From NCBI RefSeq assembly GCF_036010485.1, contig NZ_CP108568.1, positions 2,936,001 to 3,000,000 on the forward strand: DNA of 64,000 nucleotides. The letters are read 5' to 3'. The stretch's first letter is position 1. Each line of letters begins with the position of its first letter. Both the position numbers and the translations under genes were made by a program. Below are positions 41,764 through 55,924 of this stretch, in pieces. The DNA is from Streptomyces sp. NBC_01198 (GTDB lineage Bacteria > Actinomycetota > Actinomycetes > Streptomycetales > Streptomycetaceae). A model generated the notes under the pieces. That model saw only the letters and a program-made list of their open reading frames with translations, had not been told where the DNA came from and searched no databases.

Positions 41764-42930
41764 TCAGACCTCGCCGAGAGCGGAACCGCTGGCCAGCGGC
41801 CTTTCCGCGGTCGCCTGCTCGAAGAGCCATTCGGCCTTGAGCTCGGCATAACCCGGCTTGATCACCTCGTTGATCATGGCCAGACGTTCATCGAAAGGGA
41901 TGAACGCTGATTTCATCCCATTGACGGTGAACCACTGCATGTCGTCGAGCGTGTATCCGAACGCCTCGACCAGGTGCTCGAACTCGCGGCTCAGGCTGGT
42001 CCCCGACATGAGGCGGTTGTCCGTGTTGACCGTGACCCGGAAGTACAGCCGCCGCAGCAGCCCGATCGGATGTTCGGCGTACGAACTGGCGGCGCCCGTC
42101 TGCAGGTTGGAGGTCGGGCACATCTCCAGCGGCACGCGCTTGTCGCGGACGTACGACGCCAGCCGGCCGAGCGAGACCTGACCGCCGGGGCCGACCTCGA
42201 TGTCGTCGATGATCCGCACCCCGTGGCCGAGGCGGTCGGCGCCGCACCACTGGAGCGCCTGCCAGATCGAGGGCAGGCCGAACGCCTCGCCGGCGTGGAT
42301 GGTGAAGTGGTTGTTCTCCCGCTTCAGATACTCGAACGCGTCGAGGTGCCGGGTGGGCGGGTAACCGGCCTCCGCGCCCGCGATGTCGAAGCCCGCGACG
42401 CCCGAGTCGCGGTAGGTGTTGGCCAGTTCGGCGATCTCCTGCGACCGGGCGGCGTGCCGCATCGCGGTGAGCAGCGCGCCGACCCTGATCCGGTTGCCGT
42501 CCTCACGGGCCCGCCGCTCCCCCTCGCGGAAGCCGGTGTTGACCGCTTCCACCACCTCTTCGAGGGTGAGCCCGGCCTCCAGGTGCTGCTCGGGCGCGTA
42601 ACGCACCTCGGCGTAGACCACGCCGTCCGCCGCCAGGTCCTCGGCGCACTCGGCGGCGACCCGGATCAGCGCGTCACGTGTCTGCATCACCGCGCAGGTG
42701 TGCGCGAAGGTCTCCAGGTACCGTTCGAGCGAGCCGGAGTCGGCGGCCTGCCTGAACCACGTCCCGAGCTTGTCGGGGTCGGTCTCGGGCAGCCCGTCGT
42801 AGCCGGTCTCACGTGCGATGTCGACGACGGTGCCGGGGCGCAGGCCACCGTCCAGGTGGTCGTGCAGCAGCACCTTGGGGGCACGTCGGATCTGTTCCCG
42901 GGTCGGAACGCCCGGTTTCGGGTTCTGCAT
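41764..42930 (-). CDS. add: Adenosine deaminase
   Basis: This 388-aa metallo-dependent hydrolase converts (deoxy)adenosine to (deoxy)inosine. Zinc and catalytic residues are seen in [28 protein letters not shown], and the TDN of [25 protein letters not shown] is typical of actinobacterial enzymes. ATG 42930 ([13 protein letters not shown]) is chosen: a candidate -10 TATCGT lies 7 nt upstream and the CTACGCGCGTAG operator just beyond it. The longer frame to 43047 would cover the operator and is rejected. The product feeds purine nucleoside phosphorylase. Confidence 0.95.
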
Positions 42931-42947
42931 GGTCGAAACGATACGCC

Positions 42948-42959
42948 CTACGCGCGTAG
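42948..42959. promoter_or_regulatory. CTACGCGCGTAG operator, add
   Basis: A perfect CTACGCGCGTAG lies 17 bp upstream of the add start codon. On the minus strand it is followed by GGCG and the candidate -10 TATCGT, then 7 nt and ATG: again a near-leaderless promoter with the operator next to the -10. Confidence 0.76.
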
Positions 42960-43031
42960 AACTCGCGGACGGGGCAAATATTTTCCGCCCGGCCATACTG
43001 TGCACACCCTTGCGTCTGCCATCGTTGCGCC

Positions 43032-43820
43032 ATGGCTTCACAAGCATTACCGGCGCGTGGCGCCCGGCTCGGGCGCCAGGTCGCGCCCGGCCTGGTGCCG
43101 GCGCCGCGCTCGCGGGAACAGCCCGACGACGGCGCCACAGTACGCGCCGTCGTGCTCGCGCTGCCCGGTGGGGACGCGCTGAGCACGCGGCGCCGCTCCC
43201 CGATGGCTGCGGCCGTGATGTGGCCGCTGGCCAGGCACTTGGTACGCCACGGAATGGCCGACGGGGTGGCCGCGCATGTCGTCCACTACCGCTTCCGCGG
43301 CTGGAACGGCGGCCACGCGCACCCGGCGGAGGACGCGGAGTGGGCCGTCGGCGAGGCGGTCAGGCGCTACGGCGACGTGCCGGTGTGCCTGGTCGGGCTG
43401 GACATGGGCGCGCGGGCCGCGCTGCACGCCGCCGGGCACCCCGCGGTGAGCTCGGTGGTGGCCCTCTCCCCGTGGCTGCCGGGCGGCCCGGAGCCGGAGC
43501 CGGTCAAGCAGTTGATCGGGCGCCGGGTGATGCTCGTGCACGGGACGCAGGACGACTCCACCGACCCGGACCTCTCCTACCGGTTCGCGGAGCGCGCGAA
43601 GAAGGTGAACCGGGAGGTGTGCCGGTTCGAAGTGCACTCCGACGGGCACGGGTTGCATCAGCACCGGGCCGAAGTCTTCGCCCTCACCACCGACTTCGTC
43701 CTCGGCTCCCTCCTCGACCGGCCGTACGCCCGGCCGGTCGCCGACGCGCTGGCGGCTCCGCCGCCGCTGGGCCTGCGCATGCCCCTGGCCACCGGCTTCG
43801 GCCGCGCGCTGCGCGCGTAG
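43032..43820 (+). CDS. Alpha/beta hydrolase-fold protein with Asp at the nucleophile elbow
   Basis: 262 aa. The fold is shown by [13 protein letters not shown] (first strands), the elbow [18 protein letters not shown], the acid loop [12 protein letters not shown] and the late histidine in [10 protein letters not shown]. The elbow reads GLDMG instead of GxSxG, so Asp replaces the usual Ser, as in dehalogenase- or epoxide-hydrolase-like members, or the protein may be non-catalytic. It is not linked to an operon; add is divergent. Substrate unknown. Confidence 0.8.
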
Positions 43821-44193
43821 CGCGCAGCTGCGGCCCAAGTCCGCCTCAAAGCGGGGCCCAAGCGCGCCTCAAGCGCGCCTCAAATCTGCGCGCATGGCGC
43901 GACCACGCAACGAGTAACTCCTTGCCTGTTCTCAGCGACTGCGGCACAATCCCCGCTGAAACTACTATGAGTCTCAAACTACAATTACCCTCTTCTGTCC
44001 TGCCCTCACAGGCCCGTGCCTATCCGGCGCGAGCCTGTCCTGACGTGGATCCGCCCGCCGACGCCTGACCACTCACCGCGGGCGACTCAGCTCAAGTCAC
44101 GCCCTAAGCCGACGAGTTGACTAATTTGTCGGTCCCTAATCTCCATTCATCCACCACGACAGACCGTCAACCGTGGAGATCGGTGAGGCATCT
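43821..44193. other. Intergenic region upstream of the large secreted enzyme
   Basis: 373 bp without a gene. The left end holds short direct repeats of CGCGCCTCAAG. From about 43920 the DNA is notably A+T-richer than the rest of the window and should hold the promoter of the gene at 44194. TTGACT (44117-44122) and TAATCT (44137-44142) are present but only 14 bp apart. Confidence 0.5.
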
Positions 44194-47100
44194 ATGCGCA
44201 TCAGACAAAAAGCCGCCGTCGCGGGAATCTTCACCCTGCTGTCGGCGGTGATCGTGGCGGGTCCCGCAAGCGCCGCACCCGGCGCGCAGGCAGGCGTACC
44301 GCCCCGAGGTGATCCGTCGGCGGCATCGGGCGCACCGGCGCAGCCGCAGGCCGCGCCGAAGGACCAGGGTCCCGCCGACCGGGCCACCACGCCGAACCGC
44401 GATCTGGCCAAGGGCTGGAAGAGCTCCCAGGACCGGGCGGTGACCCTCGCACCCGACGCGGACGGCCTGCACGTACTGGTCGCCGACAGCAAGGACGCGT
44501 ACGCCTGGCACACCGTCACCACCCTGTCGGAGGCCGGCTTCGACACCGATCTGTGGATCGGCAACTCCTGCCTGGCCGACCGTGCGCACGCCTTCGTGGT
44601 CTACGCGCCGCGGGGGTTCACCAACACCGAGAACCTGATGGAGCGTGGCGCCTTCACCGCGGTCGTCGACCTCGACACCGGGGCCGTGCGCAAGCTGCCG
44701 CTCAACGGGACGCTGGCGTACTTCGACCCGACCTGCGACACCGCCTCGCACACCGCGGTCTTCACCCAGGTCGCGGATGACAGTACCCGCCTGGTCACCG
44801 TCGGCACCGACGGCAGGACCGTGGCCACCACCACAGCCGCGGGCGAGATCACCTCCGCCGTACCGTCGGGTGACGGCCTACTGGCCGCCGACGGGCACCA
44901 CGTGGTGCGGATCGACCGGCAGGGCCGCAAGACCACCGTGGCGACCACCTCGGGTGTCCCGTCGGCGATCCACCAGGACTCCGGCGGCGGCGTCGACTTC
45001 CTCGACCAGACCGCGACCGTCCAGTCCGCCCGTCGCACGGCGGGAGGCAGGACCCGCGTACTGGCCACCGGCGCGACCGGCGCGCTGGGGCTGAACCAGG
45101 GCCTGGCGGGGCAGGTGTTCCTGACCGGCACGCCCAGGACCACCGCCGCGCTGCCCTCCCAGATACGACGGGTGGCGGCCCCGGCCGGCACGGACCTGTC
45201 CACCGAGGGGCGGCTCTCGGTGGCCCAGGCCGTCTCCCCCGGCCTGCACACGCACGTCGAGCACCCCATCGCCGGCACCGGCACACCGTCCGCGGACGGC
45301 AGCCTGCAGATCGCGGCGAAGGTCACCGGCACCGGCAAGACGCTGGACTTCTCGGCGGACCCCCACGCGGCCACCGCCAAGGCCGCGGGGAGCGGCAACG
45401 CGCAGTCCCCGTCGCTGGCCGGCGGCCCGGGCACCGGCCAGGCGGCAAGCGCGTCGCCGAAGGCCGCCTCGCCCTCCTCGCCGGTGGACACCGACCGCAC
45501 CTGCGCCATCGCACGCAACGATCCGACGCTGCAGGCGTATCAGCCGACGCCCAACCAGGTGGAGTGGGCCGTCGACATGGCGGTCCGCGGGGACCTGACC
45601 TCGGCCTACCTCCAGGAGACCGACTGGCGTGCCCGCGAGGGACTGAGCAGCTCCAACCCGCAGGGGATGTTCCCGCTGCCCTCGCTGACCGGTGGCGGAC
45701 GCATCCCCGCGCAGGTGCTGCTCGGCATCCTCACCCAGGAGTCCAACCTGTGGCAGGCCGAGGGCGGCGCGCTGCCCGGCCAGTCGTCCAGCCCGATCAC
45801 CGGCAACTTCTACGGCCATGACAACGACGCGACCGGCCAGGACGCCTGGAAGATCGACTGGTCCAAGACCGACTGCGGTTACGGCATCGGGCAGATCACC
45901 GACGGCATGAAGCTCGGCCCGGTCTCGCTGCCCGCCGACCAGCAGAAGGCGGTGGCGCTCGACTACGCCGCCAACATCGCGGAGGCCGCCCGGATCCTGG
46001 CCACCAAGTGGAACGAACTCCAGGCCCCGTCGGTCGGCATCACCATCAACAACAACAGCGCCTCGGCGATCGAGGACTGGTTCGCGGCGGTGTGGGACTA
46101 CAACTCGGGATTCAACCCGCCGGGCCAGGACGCCTCAGGGCACTGGGGTCTGGGCTGGCTGAACAACCCGGCCAACCCGCTCTACCCGGCCGGCCGGCAC
46201 GCGTTCCTCGACGGCAACACCTACGCCGACGCGGCACACCCCGGGAACTGGCCCTACCAGGAGAAGGTGATGGGCTGGGCAGCCTGGCCGATCGATACCG
46301 GCCACTCCTACACCAGCGACGGACACGAGCAGTTGCCCACCGACTCCGGCTACGGCAGCGCCGGCTACACGGCCGCCTGGTGGGCCGGGGACAACGGTGA
46401 CATCGCCAACTACAACCGCAGCATGGTCAAGCCGCCGCTCGACACCTTCTGCCAGCAGAGCGTCAACGCCTGCGTCGTCAGCAGCCCGCCCACCTGCGAG
46501 ACCGACGGGCTGCACGACAAGACCTGCGATCCGAAGCACTGGTGGGCCGCACCCGCCACCTGGAAGACGGACTGCGCCACCACCTGCGGCCACGAGAACC
46601 TCAAGTACGTGACGCTGCGGACCGAGCCGGGCAACGCCGACAGCGCCACCCCTGACTGCAATCCCAGCCGGATTCCGGCCAACTCGCTGCTCATCGACTC
46701 GGTCTCCGGCAGCGTGCCACCGCTGCGCAGCGGCTGCACCAAGACCTGGACCGACGCCGGCGCCCTGTCGTTCAGTTTTGACGCGGACAGCGACAGCCAC
46801 TACGAGGCCAAGGCGGATCTGCACCAGATCGGCGGCGGCTTCGGCGACCACTTCTGGTACGCCCACACCCGGAACGGCGACACCGGGGTGGCCAAGACCA
46901 ACGATCCGATCACCGACTACTCCCTGCCGCCGACGGCCCAGGGCGACATGGCCGTCCGCGGCACCTGGAAGCTGTCGCAGAACATCAACAAGTGGGCCAG
47001 GGTCTGGGTGCACATCCCCGCCACCGGTGCCACCAGCCAGCAGGCCATCTACGCCATCGACACCGGCACGACAGGGCCGACTAGCACCCCGCCCAAGTAC

Positions 47101-48309
47101 CGCATGGTGAACCAGTCCGAGCGCAAGAACGTGTGGGTGCAGCTCGGCGTGTTCCAGTTCTCCGGCACGGGGCCGCAGGGTGTGGAGCTGAGCAACTGGA
47201 CGTTCGACGGCACCGCCGACGACGACATCGCCTGGGACGCGGTGGACATCCAGCCGCTGCCGGGCAAGCCCGCCAACTTCGTGGTCTCGATGGGCGACTC
47301 GTACTCCTCCGGCGAGGGCGCGGCCGACGGCGACGGCGACTACTACTCCGAGACCGACTGGCGCACCAGCACCGACGCCAACGGCTGCCACCGCTCGGTC
47401 TACTCCTGGGCGCGCAACGCGATACTGCCCGGCACCTCGGCCAACGTGGGCCACCTCGCGGACTCGGCCGACCCCGGCATGGACTTCCACCAGGTGGCCT
47501 GCTCCGGCGCGCAGTCACCGAGCCTGTCGTCGCTGGACACCTCCGAGACCTACGACCTCACCGCCAACGAGGACTTCAACGGAAGGTTCTACGGCGAACT
47601 TCCACAGATCCATCAGGGCTACCTCGATGAGAACACCACCCTGGTGACCCTGACGATCGGCGGCAACGACGCACGGTTCGGCCCGGTCCTGGCGCAGTGC
47701 ATGATCGCGACCGCGGCCACCAACTGCGCCAACAGTTCCTTCAAGCCGCCCAACGCGACCGAGAACGAGCAGCAGACCGACCGCTGGCGGACCGGCTACT
47801 TCATCGTGAACGGCGAGCCGCTGAGCGACGCGCTGCCGCTGGTCATCGACAACGTGGCAGTGGAAGGCGCGTCGGAGGCGCTCGGCATGATCAGGTCGCA
47901 GGCCCCGAACGCGAAGATCGTGATTCTCGGCTATCCGCGACTGTTCGAGAACCAGGGGTCCTGTGTACGCAGCGGACCCGGCATTCTCAGCCCGCTCGGG
48001 CTCTCCGCCAACTCCGTGGCCTTCCTCAACGAGATGGGCGACTATCTGAACGCCCAGCTCAAGGCGATGGTCGCGAAGTTCGACCACGACGCCGGGGAGC
48101 ACTTCGTGTTCGCCGATCCGACCTCCGCCTTCGCGGGCAAGGGAGTCTGCTCCGCGGCCCCGGCCATCAACAGCTTCCGCACCACGCTGACAGCCAGCGA
48201 CACCTCCTCGCTCTTCGGGCTGATCAAGATGTCCGCCGAGTCCTTCCACCCCAACAAGACCGGCACCCAGATCTACGCACAAGTCCTGGAGGACGCCTTG
48301 AACCAGTGA
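44194..48309 (+). CDS. Secreted multidomain enzyme: lysozyme-like, golvesin-like and SGNH hydrolase
   Basis: 1371 aa with a signal peptide (IRQKAAVAGIFTLLSAVIVA, cleavage near GPASAA). About 65-400 resembles a beta-propeller. About 500-720 is a lysozyme-like transglycosylase domain (LLGILTQESNLWQ with probable catalytic Glu516; CGYGIGQITDGM). About 880-1025 is a golvesin/xly-like beta domain (WTDAGALSFSFDADSD to WTFDGTADDDIAWDAVDI, shown by ends). About 1028-1371 is an SGNH/GDSL hydrolase: MGDSYSSGEG (Ser1036), TIGGNDARF (Asn1158) and ESFHPN (His1352), with Glu1349 where DxxH is usual. It probably cleaves glycan strands and esters in a cell envelope. GGTGAGG lies 5 nt before ATG 44194. Confidence 0.85.
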   Translation: MRIRQKAAVAGIFTLLSAVIVAGPASAAPGAQAGVPPRGDPSAASGAPAQPQAAPKDQGPADRATTPNRDLAKGWKSSQDRAVTLAPDADGLHVLVADSKDAYAWHTVTTLSEAGFDTDLWIGNSCLADRAHAFVVYAPRGFTNTENLMERGAFTAVVDLDTGAVRKLPLNGTLAYFDPTCDTASHTAVFTQVADDSTRLVTVGTDGRTVATTTAAGEITSAVPSGDGLLAADGHHVVRIDRQGRKTTVATTSGVPSAIHQDSGGGVDFLDQTATVQSARRTAGGRTRVLATGATGALGLNQGLAGQVFLTGTPRTTAALPSQIRRVAAPAGTDLSTEGRLSVAQAVSPGLHTHVEHPIAGTGTPSADGSLQIAAKVTGTGKTLDFSADPHAATAKAAGSGNAQSPSLAGGPGTGQAASASPKAASPSSPVDTDRTCAIARNDPTLQAYQPTPNQVEWAVDMAVRGDLTSAYLQETDWRAREGLSSSNPQGMFPLPSLTGGGRIPAQVLLGILTQESNLWQAEGGALPGQSSSPITGNFYGHDNDATGQDAWKIDWSKTDCGYGIGQITDGMKLGPVSLPADQQKAVALDYAANIAEAARILATKWNELQAPSVGITINNNSASAIEDWFAAVWDYNSGFNPPGQDASGHWGLGWLNNPANPLYPAGRHAFLDGNTYADAAHPGNWPYQEKVMGWAAWPIDTGHSYTSDGHEQLPTDSGYGSAGYTAAWWAGDNGDIANYNRSMVKPPLDTFCQQSVNACVVSSPPTCETDGLHDKTCDPKHWWAAPATWKTDCATTCGHENLKYVTLRTEPGNADSATPDCNPSRIPANSLLIDSVSGSVPPLRSGCTKTWTDAGALSFSFDADSDSHYEAKADLHQIGGGFGDHFWYAHTRNGDTGVAKTNDPITDYSLPPTAQGDMAVRGTWKLSQNINKWARVWVHIPATGATSQQAIYAIDTGTTGPTSTPPKYRMVNQSERKNVWVQLGVFQFSGTGPQGVELSNWTFDGTADDDIAWDAVDIQPLPGKPANFVVSMGDSYSSGEGAADGDGDYYSETDWRTSTDANGCHRSVYSWARNAILPGTSANVGHLADSADPGMDFHQVACSGAQSPSLSSLDTSETYDLTANEDFNGRFYGELPQIHQGYLDENTTLVTLTIGGNDARFGPVLAQCMIATAATNCANSSFKPPNATENEQQTDRWRTGYFIVNGEPLSDALPLVIDNVAVEGASEALGMIRSQAPNAKIVILGYPRLFENQGSCVRSGPGILSPLGLSANSVAFLNEMGDYLNAQLKAMVAKFDHDAGEHFVFADPTSAFAGKGVCSAAPAINSFRTTLTASDTSSLFGLIKMSAESFHPNKTGTQIYAQVLEDALNQ

Positions 48310-48365
48310 CACGGTGAGCGGTGCCGCGCCGACAGTAAGCACGTTCGGGGACCGGAGGAGGGGCG

Positions 48366-49052
48366 ATGCGATCAGCGCAGGCGGTGCGGGAGAAGGCTCT
48401 CGGGCTGTTCGGCCTGCTGCTGATCCACGGCCGTGCGGCCTGGGAGGCCGCCGTCTGCGGCATCCCGAGCAACGCCCGGCTGCACTGTACGGTCCGGTCA
48501 CGGCGAATCCGCCGGGACCGGACCAGGGCCGCCGCGGAGTTGCACGAGCGCATCGCGGCGGCCGCCGCCGCGGTTCCGTCGGCCCGGATGCTGTGCGTCC
48601 GCATCGACGACCGCGCGCTGCGTCCTGCGCGTTACGTCCCGAGGATCGACCGTCCGCCCGGCGGCCCCGAGGGGCCGGCCCTGACCGGCACCGTCTTCGC
48701 CGAGGCATACTTCGGCACGGACGCGGACCCCGGACAGGTGACAGCGGAACTCGTCGCCGGCGCCACCGGCTCCTGGCGGCCCCGCGCGGCCTCCTGGATC
48801 TGCGAGCCCTTCGCCCAGTGGGAGCAGGACCTGCCCCACCGCCCGCTGCGATGGCGCCCCGGCCCCGGTCCGCACGCTGTCGCCGTCATCCGGCGCGACG
48901 AACGGACGGTACCCGCCGTCTGGTCGCTCGCGGACGCCCGTACGCAATACGGCACACTGCTGCGCTGGAGTTCGCACACCCGCTATCTCACCGTACCCCG
49001 CCACCCGTGGACACATCGCCTTGAATCCCTTGTCCACCGCCCAATCCCGTAA
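48366..49052 (+). CDS. Hypothetical protein, 228 aa
   Basis: A cytoplasmic protein, Arg- and Ala-rich, starting MRSAQAVREKALGLFGLLLI. Two features stand out: a basic N-terminal third (RSRRIRRDRTRAAAELHERI) and a Trp-rich C-terminal half (GSWRPRAASWICEPFAQW, RRWRP-type segments). No signal peptide or known motif. ATG 48366 follows a strong GGAGGAGGGGCG site, which supports translation. It stands 56 bp behind the large secreted enzyme gene and may be cotranscribed. Confidence 0.6.
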   Translation: MRSAQAVREKALGLFGLLLIHGRAAWEAAVCGIPSNARLHCTVRSRRIRRDRTRAAAELHERIAAAAAAVPSARMLCVRIDDRALRPARYVPRIDRPPGGPEGPALTGTVFAEAYFGTDADPGQVTAELVAGATGSWRPRAASWICEPFAQWEQDLPHRPLRWRPGPGPHAVAVIRRDERTVPAVWSLADARTQYGTLLRWSSHTRYLTVPRHPWTHRLESLVHRPIP

Positions 49053-49141
49053 ACAGCGGACGGGTATTGCGGTCGACGGAAATTCGCAATACGATCCCAT
49101 GTCAACAATCAATCGGCCCGCCCGTACGAAATGAGGATACT

Positions 49142-49699
49142 ATGCGTTCCAAAGCACCAAAGGTCGGTTATCTCGTCGCCGCAGCGGCTGCGGCCATCGC
49201 CGTACCGATGGCCGTCGCCCCACCGAGCAGCGCGGCTCCCGGAGACGTCGCCTCCCCTTCGTCCATCGTCACGTACAACGTGTGGAACGACTGTGCCGTC
49301 TGGTCGGGGAACTGCAACGGCGACAAGAACGGAGAGCCGACCGACTCCCTGTGGATCCTCTATCACTCGACGGCCTACAAGGACTCATCGCTCGCCATGA
49401 TGTACGGAAACATCTCGAATTACGACTACAGCGAGGTGGCGGACCACGGCACGACCTACCACTACCACTACGTCTTCAAGCAGGGTGCCCCCACAACGGA
49501 TGGGGGGAAAGGCGCGGGCCAGGCGATCAAGAACAACGCCGCCGCCGTGATGCAGTGCGGCTACGACAATTACCGGGTCTACTACAACTCCGGCTGGACA
49601 GGGCCCTCCCAGAATTTCCCCTGGAACAACTACTGCAACAAAAAGGTCAACCTCAACTCCACCCTCCTGAACGAGGACGCCTCCCAGCACTTCTCCTGA
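49142..49699 (+). CDS. Secreted beta/gamma-crystallin-like (peptidase-inhibitor I36-type) protein
   Basis: 185 aa with a long signal peptide (KAPKVGYLVAAAAAAIAVPM, cleavage near PSSAA). The mature part (about 150 residues) has four Cys, is rich in Tyr, Asn and Ser, and ends with IKNNAAAVMQCGYDNYRVYY and GWTGPSQNF. That pattern resembles the NNAxS...VYYNSxYxGPSQ repeat of beta/gamma-crystallin and I36-type secreted proteins of actinobacteria. Inhibitor activity is not shown. ATG 49142 follows TGAGGA; an upstream in-frame start at 49067 has no signal logic. It is followed by a lipoprotein and an export system. Confidence 0.65.
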   Translation: MRSKAPKVGYLVAAAAAAIAVPMAVAPPSSAAPGDVASPSSIVTYNVWNDCAVWSGNCNGDKNGEPTDSLWILYHSTAYKDSSLAMMYGNISNYDYSEVADHGTTYHYHYVFKQGAPTTDGGKGAGQAIKNNAAAVMQCGYDNYRVYYNSGWTGPSQNFPWNNYCNKKVNLNSTLLNEDASQHFS

Positions 49700-49754
49700 C
49701 CCCGCCACGCGCCAGACCCCCCGCCGCACCCACCGCGTAGGAAGTCCGCACCTC

Positions 49755-50750
49755 ATGCACAACGCCACAGTGATGCCCGGGCGTACCGCCGGCTGCCCGG
49801 ACCGGCGGCGCCGTCCGGGCATCGCTGCCGCCCTGTCCCTCCTTGCCGCCGTGCTCATCGGGTCGGCGCTCACCGGCTGCTCGACGGCGGGCGGGGACAC
49901 GGGGGACGCCGCGTCCGGGAAGAAGACCGCCGCGAACGCCGGTTGGCCGGACGCCGTGCCGAAGACCGGGCTCGCCAAGGGAATGGTGCTGCCCCTTGAG
50001 GCCTACATGGAGACGTATCCGGAGACGGTGACGATCCAGCGGGCGGTCATCCGGCTGGAGACGCAGTGCATGGCCGGATACGGTTTCCACGTCTCGCTGC
50101 CGCCGGCCGGCATGACTCCCCCGCCGAACAACGACGACTCCAACATGGCGCGCCGCTACGGGATCACCGACCGCGACGCGGCCGCCAAGCTGGCGTACTC
50201 CATCGGCGACGACGACCGGACCCCGCCGCCGGCGCCGAAGCTCACCGGCGCCGAGGTCGCCGTACTGACCGGGCATGTCGCGATGAAGCCCGACGCGGCC
50301 AAGGCGCCGTCCACCTTCCACGGCAAGGCGGTGCCGGACGGCGGCTGCGGCCAACAGGCCATGGACAAGGTCGGCTTGGGACGGATCGACACCAGCGTGG
50401 CCGGGCGGCTCGACGCGGACAGCATGAGCACATCGCAGGCCGATCCGCGGGTGCAGGCGGTCATCGCCGCCTGGTCGCAGTGCATGAAGCGCAGCGGATA
50501 CAGCGTCGACAGCCCGCTGCACGCCGCCGATCTGGCGCGGACCGCGACGGGCGGGCACCCCACCGCCGCCAGTGTCCAGGTCGCCACCACCGACATCGAC
50601 TGCAAGGCGCGGACGGGGCTGGTGAAGACCTGGTTCGACGTCGAGTCGGCTGTTCAGCGACAGCAGGTCGAGCAGAACCAGTTCGCGCTGCAGGACGCCC
50701 GCGACCGGATCACCGCCACCGTCAAGACGGCTGCCGCGGTGACCAGTTGA
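49755..50750 (+). CDS. Lipoprotein of the export cluster
   Basis: 331 aa with a twin-basic start (DRRRRPGIAAALSLLAAVL) and a lipobox ending SALTGC (Cys42). The mature domain contains two CM-type segments (TQCMAGYGFHV, SQCMKRSGYSVD) and C-terminal VQRQQVEQNQFALQDARDRI, which may be a coiled coil. This is a common partner of actinobacterial membrane-fusion/MacB clusters. It is followed at 11 bp by the membrane-fusion protein gene, which has a GAGGAGG ribosome site overlapping its stop region. Function beyond transport accessory is unknown. Confidence 0.8.
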   Translation: MHNATVMPGRTAGCPDRRRRPGIAAALSLLAAVLIGSALTGCSTAGGDTGDAASGKKTAANAGWPDAVPKTGLAKGMVLPLEAYMETYPETVTIQRAVIRLETQCMAGYGFHVSLPPAGMTPPPNNDDSNMARRYGITDRDAAAKLAYSIGDDDRTPPPAPKLTGAEVAVLTGHVAMKPDAAKAPSTFHGKAVPDGGCGQQAMDKVGLGRIDTSVAGRLDADSMSTSQADPRVQAVIAAWSQCMKRSGYSVDSPLHAADLARTATGGHPTAASVQVATTDIDCKARTGLVKTWFDVESAVQRQQVEQNQFALQDARDRITATVKTAAAVTS

Positions 50751-50761
50751 GGAGGCGTCCG

Positions 50762-52051
50762 GTGAGCGGGGACGAGAGCGGCGCCTCGGCCGCGGCGGCG
50801 TCGCGGCTGGTACGGCGCCGGCGGACGGTCCTCGGCACGGCCGCGGTGGCGGTCGCGCTGTCCGTGGGCGGCCTGCTGGGGTCGAGTTGGGTGCAGTCGC
50901 CGTCGCAGGCCGCGGCCGACACCCGGCCGCCCCGCGCGAGTGTGATCACCGCGCCCGTGGTCGAGCGGGTGCTGCGCTCGACGGTGGTACTGCGCGGCAC
51001 CTTCTCCGACGGCCGTACGGTGTCGGCCGTGCCCACCTCGGTGGCGCTGACCAGGGCCACCTCGCAGCCTTCACAGCTGATGGTGACCGGTGTCTACGCA
51101 CACGCCGGGCAGAGCGTCCGCGCCGCCCAGGTGCTGGTGGAATACTCGGGCCGCCCGGTCTTCGCCCTCAAGGGCACGCTGCCCGCCTACCGCGACCTCA
51201 CCTTCGGCGAAGAGGGCAAGGACGTCGCCCAACTCCAGGACGCCCTGCGGTCCTCGGGGCATCCGACCGGGTCCGACGCCAAGGGCGTCTTCGGCACCGG
51301 CACCGAGCACGCGGTGGAGCGGCTGTACGCGAAGCTGGGTTATCCGGTGCCGGTCAACGCGGCAGGTCCGCAGTCCGGAAGCGGCACGGCGGTGGACGGC
51401 GGGGACGGTGCCGCCGGCGCCGCGGCGCCGCCCGCCGCGCCTGCGGCCCATGCGATGGTGCCCGCCTCCGAGGTGGTCTTCATCCCGTCGCTGCCCGCCA
51501 GGGTGGTGTCGGTGCCGGTGCGGGTCGGCGACCCGGTCAAGGGCAGCGTCGTGACGCTGGCCCGCGGCGGCATGACGCTCACCGGCTATCTGGACCCGTC
51601 GCAGGCGGGCCTGGTGACAGCAGGGATGAGGGCGCAGGTGCTGGCCGAGGCGACCGGCGCGCAGGCCGACGGGACGGTCGAGTCCGTGGGCGCGCCGGTG
51701 ACCCCGGACAGCGGCGGAGCAGGCGACAGCGACAGCCAGAAAACAGCCGGCGGCGCCGCGTACCTGCCGCTGGCGATCCGCCCGGCCGCCGCGTGGGACA
51801 CCAGGTTCGCCGGGCAGGACGTACGGATCACCATCACCGCCGCGGCCACCGACAAGGCCGTACTCGCCGTCCCGCAAGCGGCGATCTCGGCGGGCGCCGA
51901 CGCCAGGACCACCGTGACGGTCGTCGCCCCCTCCGGTGTGCAGCACGTCGTCCCGGTCAGGGCGGGTGTCTCGGCCGACGGCATGGTCGAGGTGACACCG
52001 CTGGACGGCGGCAGGCTCGCCGCGGGCGAGAAGGTCGTGGTCGGCCAGTGA
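50762..52051 (+). CDS. Membrane-fusion/adaptor protein with peptidoglycan-binding motif
   Basis: 429 aa. One N-terminal span (about 23-44) anchors the protein. The extracellular part has a peptidoglycan-binding-like segment (LTFGEEGKDVAQLQDALRSSG), a lipoyl/barrel-sandwich region (FIPSLPARVVSVPVRVGDPV) and HlyD-type beta-barrel parts (VPQAAISAGADARTTVTVV). In Gram-positives such adaptors work with MacB-type transporters or link export to the wall. GTG 50762 follows GAGGAGG by 6 nt. The stop overlaps the start of the ABC gene (GTGA). Confidence 0.87.
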   Translation: MSGDESGASAAAASRLVRRRRTVLGTAAVAVALSVGGLLGSSWVQSPSQAAADTRPPRASVITAPVVERVLRSTVVLRGTFSDGRTVSAVPTSVALTRATSQPSQLMVTGVYAHAGQSVRAAQVLVEYSGRPVFALKGTLPAYRDLTFGEEGKDVAQLQDALRSSGHPTGSDAKGVFGTGTEHAVERLYAKLGYPVPVNAAGPQSGSGTAVDGGDGAAGAAAPPAAPAAHAMVPASEVVFIPSLPARVVSVPVRVGDPVKGSVVTLARGGMTLTGYLDPSQAGLVTAGMRAQVLAEATGAQADGTVESVGAPVTPDSGGAGDSDSQKTAGGAAYLPLAIRPAAAWDTRFAGQDVRITITAAATDKAVLAVPQAAISAGADARTTVTVVAPSGVQHVVPVRAGVSADGMVEVTPLDGGRLAAGEKVVVGQ

Positions 52052-54078
52052 GGCCGCCGTGGCGCCGGCAGCGCGAGGCCGCATCCGTGCAGCGCGGGGA
52101 CGAACAGGCTGACCTGGTGCTGGAGTTGGCGGGGGCCGCCAAGACCTACGACGGTGTGCGGCCGGTGCACGCGCTGCGTCCCGTGGACCTGCGCGTACGG
52201 TCGGGCGACTACCTCGCGGTGGTCGGCCCTTCCGGTTCCGGCAAGTCGACGCTGCTGAACCTGCTGGGCCTGCTGGACCGGCCCACCTCCGGGGGCTACC
52301 GGCTCGGCGGCACCGACGTCGGCAGCATCGGCGAGCGCGAACGGGCCGCGCTGCGCGGCCGCCGGGTGGGCTTCGTCTTCCAGTCCTTCCATCTGCTGCC
52401 GTACCGCACCGCGTTGGAGAACGTCGCCCTCGCGCAGCTGTACGTCACGCCACGGTCGGCGCCGCGTACCGAGGCTGCGGCCGACGCCCTGCGCCGAGTA
52501 GGCCTCGCGCACCGGATGCACGCGCTGCCGACGACGCTGTCGGGCGGCGAGCGGCAGCGGGTGGCGATCGCCCGCGCCCTGGTCAACTCCCCCGACCTGC
52601 TGCTGTGCGACGAGCCGACCGGCAACCTGGACTCGGCGACCGCGGCCTCCGTCATGGACCTGCTTGACCGGCTCAACGCCTCGGGCGTGACGGTGGTCGT
52701 CATCACCCACGACCCGGTGGTCGCCGCCCGCGCCCGGCGCCGGGTCACCATCCTGGACGGGACCCTCACCGAGACCGATCACGGCCGGGAACAACCGCCC
52801 GCCGCACGCCGGTCCGCCGCGTCGGACCGGCCCGCGGCCCGGCGCACCCGGCTGACCCGGCGGGACACCCTCACGGAAGCGCTGGCCGGGGTCGTGCAGC
52901 GGCCCGGCCGCTCGGTGCTGACGATGCTCGGGACCGTGCTCGGCGTCGGGGCCTTCGTCGCCGTACTCGGCCTGACGTCGACCGCGACCGGGCAGATCGG
53001 CAAGTCCTTCAGCCTGCTGCAGGACACCACGGTCACCGTACAGGACCTCGGCACCCGAGGTGCGGCGGACAGCGGGGCGCCGCCCCCCATGGACTTCCCC
53101 GCGGACAGCGACAGCCGGCTCGACGTGCTCAACGGTGTGACCGACGCGGGCGTCTGGTGGCAGGTGCCGGTACGCAACCCGCTGACCTCGCAGCGCCCCG
53201 ACGTCACCGCCGCGGCCCTGGAAGGCGGTTCTGGCGGCGGCTCCGACATCGCGCTGTTCGCCGCGTCACCCGGCGCGGTGCGCGCGATGGAGCCGACGCT
53301 GCTGACCGGAACCCTCTTCAACGACTTCCACCAGAAGCGCGGTGAACGCGTGTGCCTGCTCGGGGCGTCGGCGGCCCGGCGACTCGGCATCACCCGCACC
53401 GACAACCAGCCCGCGGTCTTCGTCAACGGCACCGCCTACACGGTGGTCGGCATCGTCTCCGACGTGCGGCGGCTCCCGCAGACGCTGCTCGGCATGGTCA
53501 TCCCGTCGGCCACCGCGCTGCGCGCCTACGGGCCGCCGGCCGACTCGCCCGCGCAGGCGCTCATCCGCACCCGGCCGGGCGCCGGGCAACTCATCGCCCG
53601 GCAGGCGCCGTTGGCGCTGCGGCCCGACAAGCCGGCGCTCTTCACCGCGATTCCGCCGCCGGACCCGCACGCGCTGCGCGACCAGGTCGGCACCGACCTG
53701 TCCGGCCTGTTCCTCGTCCTGGCGGCGATCTGCCTGGTGGTGGGCGCGGTCGGGATCGCCAACACCACGCTGGTGGCGGTCCTTGAGCGTACCGGCGAGA
53801 TCGGTCTGCGCCGGGCGCTGGGCGCACGCCCCCGGCACATCACCGCGCAATTCCTCACCGAGTCCACGGCGTTGGGCGCGCTCGGCGGTCTGGTCGGCAC
53901 CAGCCTGGGCGTGGCGACCGTCCTCGGTACGGCACTGGCCCGGCACTGGACGGCCGTCCTCCAGCCGTACGCGGTGCTGCCCGCCCCGCTGATCGGGATG
54001 CTCACCGGCTTCGCGGCCGGCCTCTACCCCGCCCTGCGAGCCGCGAGAACCGAACCGCTTGAGGCCCTGCGCCGCTGA
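52048..54078 (+). CDS. MacB-type ABC transporter, ATPase and permease fused
   Basis: 676 aa. The N-terminal ATPase (about 22-245) has Walker A GPSGSGKST (60-68), signature LSGGERQR, Walker B LLLCDEPTGNLD and the H-loop VVITHD. A linker leads to a four-span MacB/FtsX permease (about 290-676) with a large extracellular domain between span 1 and spans 2-4. This mechanotransmission type exports peptides, lipids or antibiotics. GTG 52048 overlaps the adaptor stop by 4 bp. Many actinobacterial systems split ATPase and permease, so the fusion is worth noting. The cargo is unknown; neighbouring secreted proteins have their own Sec signals. Confidence 0.93.
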   Translation: MRPPWRRQREAASVQRGDEQADLVLELAGAAKTYDGVRPVHALRPVDLRVRSGDYLAVVGPSGSGKSTLLNLLGLLDRPTSGGYRLGGTDVGSIGERERAALRGRRVGFVFQSFHLLPYRTALENVALAQLYVTPRSAPRTEAAADALRRVGLAHRMHALPTTLSGGERQRVAIARALVNSPDLLLCDEPTGNLDSATAASVMDLLDRLNASGVTVVVITHDPVVAARARRRVTILDGTLTETDHGREQPPAARRSAASDRPAARRTRLTRRDTLTEALAGVVQRPGRSVLTMLGTVLGVGAFVAVLGLTSTATGQIGKSFSLLQDTTVTVQDLGTRGAADSGAPPPMDFPADSDSRLDVLNGVTDAGVWWQVPVRNPLTSQRPDVTAAALEGGSGGGSDIALFAASPGAVRAMEPTLLTGTLFNDFHQKRGERVCLLGASAARRLGITRTDNQPAVFVNGTAYTVVGIVSDVRRLPQTLLGMVIPSATALRAYGPPADSPAQALIRTRPGAGQLIARQAPLALRPDKPALFTAIPPPDPHALRDQVGTDLSGLFLVLAAICLVVGAVGIANTTLVAVLERTGEIGLRRALGARPRHITAQFLTESTALGALGGLVGTSLGVATVLGTALARHWTAVLQPYAVLPAPLIGMLTGFAAGLYPALRAARTEPLEALRR

Positions 54079-54126
54079 CCCGCACCCCGGCGCGGGCAGC
54101 CCACCGCCGCCGGCGGCGGGCCGAAA

Positions 54127-54158
54127 GGCCTGCGGGACGCGTGCGCGTCCTGCAGGCC
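54127..54158. terminator. Hairpin between the MacB-type gene and deoA
   Basis: GGCCTGCGGGACGCG-TG-CGCGTCCTGCAGGCC is a 15-bp stem with one G-T pair and a 2-base loop, placed between convergent genes. Confidence 0.8.
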
Positions 54159-54171
54159 GCGGCCGTCCGGG

Positions 54172-55449
54172 TCAGGCGATCCGGTCCAGCACGATCGGGC
54201 CGGGCGTGAAGTCCGTCCCCTCCGGCGCGACCGTGACGGCGCCCTCCAGCGCCTCCTCGGCGTAGCCGAAGCGCTCGGGCGTGTCCGTGTGGAGGGTCAG
54301 CAGCGGGGCGCCCTCCGTGACCCGGTCGCCCGGGCGGGCGTGCCACTCGACACCCGCTCCCGCCTGGACGGAGTCCTCCTTGCGGGCGCGGCCCGCGCCG
54401 AGCCGCCAGGCGGCGACGCCGACCGCGTAGGCGTCGAGCGCGGTCAGCACCCCGGTGGCGGGCGCCATGACGACGTGCTGCTCGCGGGCGGTGGGCAGGG
54501 CGGCGTCCGGGTCGCCGCCCTGGGCGCGGATCATGCGCCGCCAGGCGTCCATCGCGGAGCCGTCGGCGAGGGCCTTGGCCGGGTCGGCGTCCGGCAGGCC
54601 CGCCGCGGTGAGCATCTCGCGGGCCAGCGCGAGGGTGAGGTCGACGACGTCGGCGGGGCCGCCGCCCGCCAGCACCTCGACGGATTCGCGGACTTCGAGC
54701 GCGTTGCCCGCGGTCAGCCCGAGCGGTACGGACATGTCGGTGAGCAGCGCGACCGTGCGCACCCCGTGGTCGGAGCCGAGCCCGACCATCGTGGCGGCCA
54801 GTTCCCGTGCGTCGTCCAGGGACTTCATGAAGGCCCCGGAGCCGACCTTCACGTCGAGCACCAGCGAGCCGGTGCCCTCGGCGATCTTCTTGGACATGAT
54901 GGACGAGGCGATCAGCGGGATCGCTTCGACCGTGCCGGTGACGTCACGCAGCGCGTAGAGCTTCTTGTCGGCGGGCGCGAGGCCGTCGCCGGCCGCGCAG
55001 ACGACCGCGCCGACGTCGCCGAGCACGGCGAGCATCTCCTCGTTGGACAGCGACGCCCGCCAGCCGGGGATGGACTCCAGCTTGTCGAGCGTGCCGCCGG
55101 TGTGGCCGAGGCCGCGCCCGGACAGCTGCGGCACGGCCGCACCGCACGCGGCGACCAGCGGGGCCAGCGGGAGGGTGATCTTGTCGCCGACCCCGCCGGT
55201 GGAGTGCTTGTCGGCGGTGGGCCGGTCCAGGGACGAGAAGTCCATCCGCTCGCCGGAGTCGATCATCGCGGCGGTCCAGCGGGCGATCTCGGCGCGGTCC
55301 ATGCCGTTGAGCAGGATCGCCATGGCGAGCGCCGACATCTGCTCGTCGGCGACCGTGCCCCGGGTGTAGGCGTCCACCACCCAGTCGATCTGCTCGTCGC
55401 TGAGCCGCCCTCGGTCGCGCTTGGTGCGGATGACGGAAATGACGTCCAT
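54172..55449 (-). CDS. deoA: Thymidine phosphorylase (pyrimidine-nucleoside phosphorylase)
   Basis: This 425-aa enzyme cleaves thymidine or uridine with phosphate. Motifs include the phosphate loop DKHSTGGVGDKITLPLAPL, SGRGLGHTGGTLDKLESIPG, SSIMSKKIAEG and VLDVKVGSGAFMK. It is the last gene of the minus-strand nucleoside operon (permeases, cdd, deoA), 76 bp after cdd. Deoxyribose-1-phosphate made here would reach DeoC after mutase action. ATG 55449 follows GGAAGCAGAGCACC. Confidence 0.95.
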   Translation of the reverse strand: MDVISVIRTKRDRGRLSDEQIDWVVDAYTRGTVADEQMSALAMAILLNGMDRAEIARWTAAMIDSGERMDFSSLDRPTADKHSTGGVGDKITLPLAPLVAACGAAVPQLSGRGLGHTGGTLDKLESIPGWRASLSNEEMLAVLGDVGAVVCAAGDGLAPADKKLYALRDVTGTVEAIPLIASSIMSKKIAEGTGSLVLDVKVGSGAFMKSLDDARELAATMVGLGSDHGVRTVALLTDMSVPLGLTAGNALEVRESVEVLAGGGPADVVDLTLALAREMLTAAGLPDADPAKALADGSAMDAWRRMIRAQGGDPDAALPTAREQHVVMAPATGVLTALDAYAVGVAAWRLGAGRARKEDSVQAGAGVEWHARPGDRVTEGAPLLTLHTDTPERFGYAEEALEGAVTVAPEGTDFTPGPIVLDRIA

Positions 55450-55525
55450 GGTGCTCTGCTTCCTTGCGTGTCTGTGAGGGGCGGCCCGGGCCCCGGGCGG
55501 GCGGTGGGGCGGGTGCGTACCCGCC

Positions 55526-55924
55526 CTACCGCCGCAGGTCGTCCGCCCCGAAGGCGTCCGGCAGGATCTCGCGCATCGGGCGCACCCCGGCCGCGGTGTC
55601 GACCAGCAGCGCGGGGCCGCCGTTCTCCCACAGCAGCTGGCGGCAGCGCCCGCACGGCATCAGCAGGTCGCCGTGCCGGTCCACGCAGCTGAACGCGGTG
55701 AGCCGGCCGCCGCCCGAGGCGTGCAGGGCGGAGACCAGGCCGCATTCGGCGCACAGCGCGACCCCGTAGGCCGCGTTCTCGACGTTGCAGCCGACGACGG
55801 TGCGCCCGTCGTCGACCAGCGCCGCGGCGCCGACCGGGAAGCCGGAGTAGGGCGCGTAGGCCCGCTCCATGACCTCCCGGGCGGCGGCGCGCAGCGCCTC
55901 CCAGTCAACGGCCTGGGCCGTCAT
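55526..55924 (-). CDS. cdd: Cytidine deaminase
   Basis: This 132-aa homotetrameric-type enzyme converts (deoxy)cytidine to (deoxy)uridine. The zinc site is NVENAAYGVALCAE (Cys and catalytic Glu) and PCGRCRQ; AYAPYSGFPVGAAAL is the substrate loop. ATG 55924 overlaps the upstream permease stop by 4 bp (ATGA), showing operon membership. Its product is the substrate of DeoA, the next gene. Confidence 0.95.
   Translation of the reverse strand: MTAQAVDWEALRAAAREVMERAYAPYSGFPVGAAALVDDGRTVVGCNVENAAYGVALCAECGLVSALHASGGGRLTAFSCVDRHGDLLMPCGRCRQLLWENGGPALLVDTAAGVRPMREILPDAFGADDLRR

What the first reader, a model, noticed from the sequence alone, without database searches (positions are those of the whole stretch)
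44194..48309. 1371-aa secreted protein joining lysozyme-like, golvesin-like and SGNH domains
One protein combines a probable glycan-cleaving domain (Glu516), a golvesin/xly-type beta domain and an SGNH hydrolase (Ser1036, Asn1158, His1352) after a propeller-like region. In the SGNH part Glu1349 stands where Asp is usual. This could be an enzyme that cleaves glycan strands and removes O-acyl groups in the same step, for self wall remodelling or attack on competitors.
Basis: partly seen in the sequence, partly recalled or inferred. Interest (0 to 1): 0.7.

Follow-up and report, generated by a model that had tools for sequence, protein, structure and literature searches.

The report
Wall-cutting core with swappable C-terminal payload
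A soil actinomycete gene encodes a large, probably secreted protein whose predicted wall-cutting front part is kept among relatives while its tail (here a lipase-like enzyme) is swapped for DNA-cutting or toxin-like tails, which suggests a modular weapon or scavenging tool rather than a one-off double enzyme.

Summary
The observation mostly holds. The 1371-aa protein has a signal peptide, an SLT (lytic transglycosylase-like) domain with Glu516 at the catalytic place, a golvesin-type domain, and an SGNH domain with Ser1036, Asn1158 and His1352. The 'propeller' is unsupported. Glu1349 is not special: that position varies, as in the Ser-His dyad SGNH enzymes of Streptomyces. The SGNH profile's only solved matches are a phospholipase A1, a lipase and an esterase.

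The new point is the family. The core (N-terminal domain, SLT, golvesin) was found in 37 of 150 sampled Streptomyces and 16 of 35 same-genus genomes. In 112 core-bearing ORFs it carries different tails: SGNH 55, NucA/NucB-type nuclease 20, an unknown domain 15, RHS/YD cage 7, other 2, nothing further 13 (3 of these cut or split). On the core's tree the tails are partly intermixed (26 changes; minimum 4; shuffled 50). In four RHS members the tips are 20-39% identical while SLT-golvesin is 83-92%. This is the pattern of a polymorphic effector family, possibly including the uncharacterised NocE proteins of beta-lactam producers. Weapon versus scavenging is undecided. Two structure predictions failed (pLDDT 36 and 41), so the SLT call rests on sequence.

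The parts
44194..48309 (+). CDS, 1371 aa, predicted secreted: N-terminal domain, SLT-like, Cys-rich linker, golvesin-type, SGNH
44194..44277 (+). Sec-type signal peptide, residues 1-28 (by eye)
   Evidence: sequence; no predictor was run
44377..45483 (+). conserved N-terminal domain, residues 62-430, fold unknown
   Evidence: alignment A3; found in 106 of 112 core ORFs; no repeat or known fold
45529..46308 (+). SLT-like domain, about residues 446-705; Glu516 codon 45739-45741
46309..46656 (+). Cys-rich linker, residues 706-821
   Evidence: sequence; cysteine positions
46657..47256 (+). golvesin-type region, residues 822-1021 (Pfam match 922-1017)
   Evidence: found in 109 of 112 core ORFs
47272..48306 (+). 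SGNH hydrolase, residues 1027-1371; Ser1036 47299-47301, Asn1158 47665-47667, Glu1349 48238-48240, His1352 48247-48249
49142..49699 (+). small predicted secreted protein (185 aa), related to small proteins beside other core genes
   Evidence: 24.4 bits to a profile of neighbours' small proteins, best of 200 shuffles 8.8; no Pfam match
49755..50750 (+). 331-aa lipoprotein-like protein, recurrent neighbour of core genes with different tails
   Evidence: beside 10 of 23 close SGNH-type loci and 21 of 112 core ORFs; about 4 places in the own genome

Best explanation
The gene encodes a secreted, modular effector. A constant core (N-terminal domain, SLT transglycosylase-like domain, golvesin-type domain) binds and locally opens peptidoglycan; the C-terminal module is the exchangeable payload. 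Here the payload is an SGNH hydrolase of the Streptomyces phospholipase A1/lipase type, with Ser1036 and His1352 as a dyad, most likely acting on membrane lipid or another ester that the opened wall exposes. In relatives the payload is a NucA/NucB-like nuclease, an RHS/YD cage with a variable tip, or an unknown domain. The likeliest role is antagonism towards competing bacteria, as in polymorphic toxin systems. Shown by sequence: domain order, conserved catalytic residues, tail exchange on one core, tip divergence in the RHS members. Inferred: that the SLT domain cuts peptidoglycan, that the golvesin domain binds glycan, that the payload acts on a target cell, and that the SGNH substrate is lipid.
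For: Core and tails: 112 core-bearing ORFs carry SGNH 55, NucA/NucB-type 20, unknown CTD-X 15, RHS 7, other 2, nothing further 13. The tree of the SLT domain needs 26 tail changes (minimum 4); branches of high support force at least 13 for SGNH, 8 for CTD-X, 6 for the nuclease; the smallest well-supported set beyond the window and its near copy holds 33 rows with SGNH 18, nuclease 7, CTD-X 6. RHS members: RHS_repeat 5.1e-61 and DUF6531 1.6e-15 in L124, Rhs_assc_core 3.9e-21; in four of them SLT-golvesin is 83-92% identical, the last 900 residues of the RHS part 67-82%, the tips 20-39%. NucA/NucB Pfam match in 4 of 7 nuclease-class members at E <= 0.05, best 3.7e-7, over the cut-off. SLT: 13 of 23 diverse members at E <= 0.05; Glu516, Asp560, Tyr636 and Asn637 kept wherever the column is present. 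SGNH: phospholipase A1/lipase are the best solved matches; SrL, SaPLA1 and SsEst are described as Ser-His dyads lacking the acid (passages of PMC10779480). Up to 9 matches in one genome. The own genome has a copy with tail CTD-X (44% identity over residues 29-1024) and a copy that lacks the golvesin part and half of SGNH.
Against: Tails are more clustered on the tree than shuffled labels (26 against a mean of 50.1), and RHS forms one clade, so exchange is not free; 3 of the 13 'nothing further' rows are contig-cut or split genes and may add changes. The SGNH tail is well conserved, not hypervariable as toxin tips are. No immunity gene was identified: only ORFs shared by at least 4 loci were listed and six clusters were read. 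No activity is known. A nocE deletion in S. clavuligerus slowed the producer's own growth (PMC6856088 section 14), which fits scavenging better. Wall and lipid hydrolysis are ordinary secreted activities in Streptomyces (general knowledge).
Confidence: 0.48

Rival explanations
1. Scavenging enzyme family: a secreted multi-domain hydrolase that dismantles dead or lysing cells for nutrients, with wall, lipid (SGNH) and DNA (NucA/NucB) activities spread over family members.
For: The nocE deletion in S. clavuligerus reduced growth in all three broths tested, constitutive expression improved it in one, and the authors suggest nutrient acquisition (PMC6856088 section 14). Lipase and nuclease tails fit a digestion kit. 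No immunity gene stood out (limited screen).
Against: RHS cages with divergent tips on a nearly identical SLT-golvesin part are hard to explain by digestion. That S. clavuligerus NocE belongs to this family was not tested by sequence.
Confidence: 0.27
2. Self wall remodelling: the SLT core acts on the producer's own wall in growth, sporulation or lysis, and the tails tune location or secondary activity.
For: SLT domains commonly act on the cell's own wall (general knowledge); the growth defect of the nocE mutant would fit.
Against: Patchy distribution: 37 of 150 Streptomyces and 16 of 35 same-genus genomes, plasmid copies (46 plasmid records match, 20 over at least 80% of the query), and toxin-type tails; a housekeeping wall enzyme would be near-universal.
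Confidence: 0.12
3. One reading: one enzyme that cleaves glycan strands and removes O-acyl groups from the same substrate.
For: Both domains lie in one chain in the window and in 22 of 23 relatives (L021 is cut by its contig end).
Against: SGNH matches phospholipase A1 and lipases and no peptidoglycan O-acetylesterase among solved chains at E <= 0.01; the tail is exchanged for nucleases and RHS; 10 ORFs with the core end after golvesin without reaching a contig end or split.
Confidence: 0.06

Closest known systems
NocE of the nocardicin cluster and of S. clavuligerus (function unknown)
   Same: Described as secreted by Sec with a C-terminal SGNH/GDSL domain (passages and section 14 of PMC6856088).
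   Different: No NocE sequence could be fetched here, so identity of the SLT-golvesin core is a guess from the description and from recalled annotation.
Polymorphic toxin systems (Zhang et al. 2012, PMC3482391, passages only)
   Same: Constant N-terminal part, exchangeable C-terminal modules, RHS repeats with variable tips, NucA-type nuclease tails, Sec export.
   Different: SLT-golvesin core as the shared part; 'transglycosylase', 'SGNH' and 'GDSL' have no match in the held part of that paper's main text; no immunity gene shown here.
Streptomyces phospholipase A1 SaPLA1 (4hyq) and lipase SrL (5mal)
   Same: SGNH fold family, Ser-Asn-His blocks, missing or variable acid.
   Different: Those are single-domain enzymes of about 235 residues (chain lengths); here the domain is the tail of a 1371-aa protein.
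SLT (PF01464) lytic transglycosylases
   Same: Glu in an ES motif, GxGxxQ-type motif, YN motif in the same order.
   Different: Long insertions, additional invariant acids (Asp560, Asp590, Glu627), weak profile score; hydrolase or transglycosylase chemistry cannot be told.
Streptomyces umbrella toxins (PMC11062931, one passage)
   Same: Secreted antibacterial polymorphic toxins of Streptomyces.
   Different: 'transglycosylase', 'lysozyme', 'RHS' and 'phospholipase' do not occur in that text.

Membership tests
SLT / GH23-type lytic transglycosylase | catalytic Glu and the ES, GxGxxQ, YN motifs in order | tested here: met
   Glu516 109 of 109, Gln567 109 of 109, Tyr636 and Asn637 110 of 110 with the column; order as in SLT
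SLT / GH23-type lytic transglycosylase | profile score over Pfam's cut-off | tested here: inconclusive
   window protein: no match at E <= 10; 3 of 24 relatives over the cut-off; 13 of 23 diverse members at E <= 0.05; profile-profile P 0.032
SLT / GH23-type lytic transglycosylase | lysozyme-like fold | tested here: inconclusive
   models of pLDDT 36 and 41; no fold match
SGNH hydrolase | Ser (GDS), Asn (GGND) and His (HP) blocks | tested here: met
   54 of 54 with each column; PDB matches
SGNH hydrolase | Asp three before the His (classical triad) | tested here: not met
   Glu1349 here; no Asp in 54 of 54. Known dyad members lack it, so this does not exclude membership
Peptidoglycan O-acetylesterase | closest relatives are such enzymes | tested here: inconclusive
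   only three solved matches at E <= 0.01, none such; substrate untested
Polymorphic toxin system | constant N-terminal part with exchangeable C-terminal modules | tested here: met
Polymorphic toxin system | known toxin-type modules in the family (RHS with variable tips, NucA nuclease) | tested here: met
   not in the window's own protein
Polymorphic toxin system | adjacent immunity gene | tested here: inconclusive
   small secreted and lipoprotein-like neighbours recur but with any tail
Polymorphic toxin system | toxicity to target cells | not testable with these tools
   needs experiment
NocE | secreted, C-terminal SGNH | tested here: met
   by description only
NocE | sequence identity to S. 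clavuligerus or N. uniformis NocE | not tested
   no such sequence was fetched
beta-propeller protein | repeated blades in residues 62-430 | tested here: not met
   no internal repeat by profile self-comparison; a weak test

The most novel reading that the evidence does not exclude
The N-terminal-SLT-golvesin core is a dedicated wall-piercing delivery module of an undescribed polymorphic toxin class in filamentous actinomycetes. It carries lipase, nuclease, RHS-caged and unknown payloads into competing Gram-positive cells, and it would explain the long-unassigned NocE proteins beside beta-lactam clusters.
Probability: 0.35. Interest if true: 0.75.

Novelty: new variant of a known kind. Interest (0 to 1): 0.55.

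Why it matters
If right, it shows how a Gram-positive bacterium could bring large protein effectors through a competitor's thick wall without an injection machine, by fusing a wall-cutting core to the payload. It would also turn NocE, whose deletion gave growth effects but no role in antibiotic synthesis (PMC6856088), into a testable effector, and gives one unknown ~410-aa tail (CTD-X) as a candidate new effector domain.

Tried and rejected
Structure: AlphaFold on residues 430-822 (24 rows; pLDDT 35.8) and on the trimmed SLT region of relative L018 (24 rows, window among them; pLDDT 41.1, pTM 0.49); Foldseek on the second: no match at E <= 10. Deeper alignment from viral contigs: 62 pattern matches, no relative. 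PDB profile search with the SLT region: nothing at E <= 10. PHROGs, NCBIfam and PADLOC gave nothing for the window protein.

Propeller: rejected for lack of evidence. Small neighbour as a peptidase-inhibitor I36 relative: profile comparison gave no link (P 0.2), although a different small neighbour in seven loci matches I36 (L011, E 1.1e-9). MacB-type transporter as a conserved neighbour: most links are generic ABC similarity; only L130 is close (81% over 227 residues). NocE hits in PMC3124536 and PMC1779556 are other things (a thiopeptide gene, a species abbreviation).

Sampling limits: the 23 close relatives were found by peptide patterns of the window protein, so they favour SGNH tails. Census: own genus 20 of 22 non-own places fetched; Streptomyces 68 of 75 listed places fetched (3 already held, 4 fragments left out); class sample 23 ORFs, two of them own-genome copies, with one broken place (L078) left out. 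The 112 ORFs include one split gene counted as two (L206). Profiles for SGNH, CTD-X, nuclease and RHS tails were built from members of these same sets. The SLT comparison used 20 of 30 loci; 10 were dropped because my motif pattern found nothing in them, which favours motif agreement. The tree left out rows with under 250 aligned residues and identical rows (111 rows, quick search, no bootstrap).
Full report
Observation. The ORF at 44194-48309 (+) encodes 1371 residues with a signal peptide by eye. One scan of bacterial genomes returned 23 relatives, L001 (Actinacidiphila bryophytorum) at 85% and the rest Streptomyces at 38-47% best-segment identity. All 24 rows keep Glu516; all 23 rows that reach the SGNH part keep Ser1036 and His1352, and 22 keep Asn1158. 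The genus of the window is inferred to be Actinacidiphila, because a same-genus genome holds a contig of the same length as the L001 record.

SLT domain. The window protein has no Pfam SLT match even at E <= 10. Relatives do: 4 of 24, three over the cut-off, and 13 of 23 in a more diverse set (E <= 0.05, best 5.7e-5). A profile comparison places Glu516 on the SLT catalytic Glu and aligns the later motifs in order, with a modest P of 0.032 (the SLT rows were preselected by motif, 20 of 30). In 112 core ORFs Glu516, Asp560, Gln567, Asp590, Glu627, Tyr636 and Asn637 never differ where present. Structure prediction did not help. I hold the SLT assignment as probable, not proven.

Golvesin and SGNH. 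Both Pfam families match the window protein just under cut-off and all 23 members of the alignment at E <= 1. The golvesin-SGNH profile finds phospholipase A1 4hyq, lipase 5mal and esterase 1esc, and no other solved sequence at E <= 0.01. Position 1349 varies. Passages of PMC10779480 describe SrL, SaPLA1 and SsEst as Ser-His dyads without the acid, so Glu1349 is an ordinary variant.

Family. In the own genome two further copies exist: one at 834 kb with the same core and a different tail (44% over residues 29-1024), one at 882 kb that matches residues 62-811 and 1227-1369 only, so it lacks the golvesin part and the first half of SGNH. The core model hits 14 of 296 genomes of the class, 16 of 35 of the genus and 37 of 150 Streptomyces, with up to 9 matches in one genome (that this genus is Streptomyces is inferred from a contig of the same length as a named Streptomyces plasmid). 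46 plasmid records match, 20 over at least 80% of the query.

Tails. Among 112 ORFs the N-terminal domain is found in 106 and golvesin in 109, and the tails are SGNH 55, nuclease-type 20, CTD-X 15, RHS 7, other 2, nothing further 13, of which two reach a contig end and one is half of a split gene. By sample: class 23 (SGNH 15, CTD-X 4, none 4), own genus 20 (nuclease 9, RHS 4, SGNH 3, CTD-X 3, other 1), Streptomyces 69 (SGNH 37, nuclease 11, none 9, CTD-X 8, RHS 3, other 1). The nuclease tail matches Pfam NucA/NucB in 4 of 7 members scanned. RHS was confirmed by Pfam and NCBIfam in L124; the others by a profile built from four of them. The four same-genus RHS members differ at their tips (20-39% identity) far more than in SLT-golvesin (83-92%) or the last 900 residues of the RHS part (67-82%).

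Exchange. On a tree of the SLT domain (111 rows) the five labels need 26 changes, minimum 4, shuffled mean 50.1; well-supported branches force at least 13 changes for SGNH. So tails have been swapped repeatedly, but not at random, and RHS arose once in this sample.

Neighbours. A lipoprotein-like gene lies beside 10 of 23 close SGNH-type loci and an I36-inhibitor-like gene beside 7 others; in the wider census the lipoprotein-like gene lies beside 21 of 112 ORFs, with all five tail groups represented, and the I36-like gene beside 4. In the own genome the lipoprotein-like family has about 4 places and Pfam I36 2 matches (39 in 21 genomes), so the linkage is not chance; its meaning is open. Loci are not independent, and several have short flanks.

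Reading. A constant wall-cutting core with exchangeable tails, some of toxin type, works like a polymorphic toxin system; this is the explanation I prefer. The main rival is a scavenging enzyme family, favoured by the growth defect of the S. clavuligerus nocE mutant (PMC6856088 section 14), if NocE belongs here, which I could not test.

Literature. Searches for golvesin, NocE, polymorphic toxins with Streptomyces, transglycosylase and RHS, umbrella toxins, GDSL effectors and a last combined search showed, in their listings, no paper describing this core; the library holds open-licence papers only. Papers were seen as passages, except section 14 of PMC6856088.

Noticed in passing
50743-54075: ABC transporter with MacB core and FtsX domains (Pfam E 9.5e-31, 3.7e-16, 3.9e-16), preceded by an HlyD-like ORF (by eye), directly after the lipoprotein-like gene.
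   Followed up: partly
48366-49052: 228-aa ORF between the large gene and the small secreted gene; weak DUF6541 match under the cut-off.
   Followed up: no
41764-55924: The large gene sits among nucleoside-salvage genes recognised by eye (adenosine deaminase, thymidine phosphorylase, cytidine deaminase), all on the other strand.
   Followed up: no
L062:5396-9730: Own-genome copy with a ~410-aa tail (CTD-X) without match in Pfam, NCBIfam, PHROGs or PADLOC; related tails in 15 of 112 core ORFs.
   Followed up: partly
L061:5894-8731: Own-genome copy that lacks the golvesin part and the first half of SGNH, including the Ser and Asn blocks, with an open frame.
   Followed up: partly
own genome C1:4336169-4337264: A lipoprotein-like homologue lies next to an I36 inhibitor match away from any core gene found, so this pair also exists on its own.
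   Followed up: no
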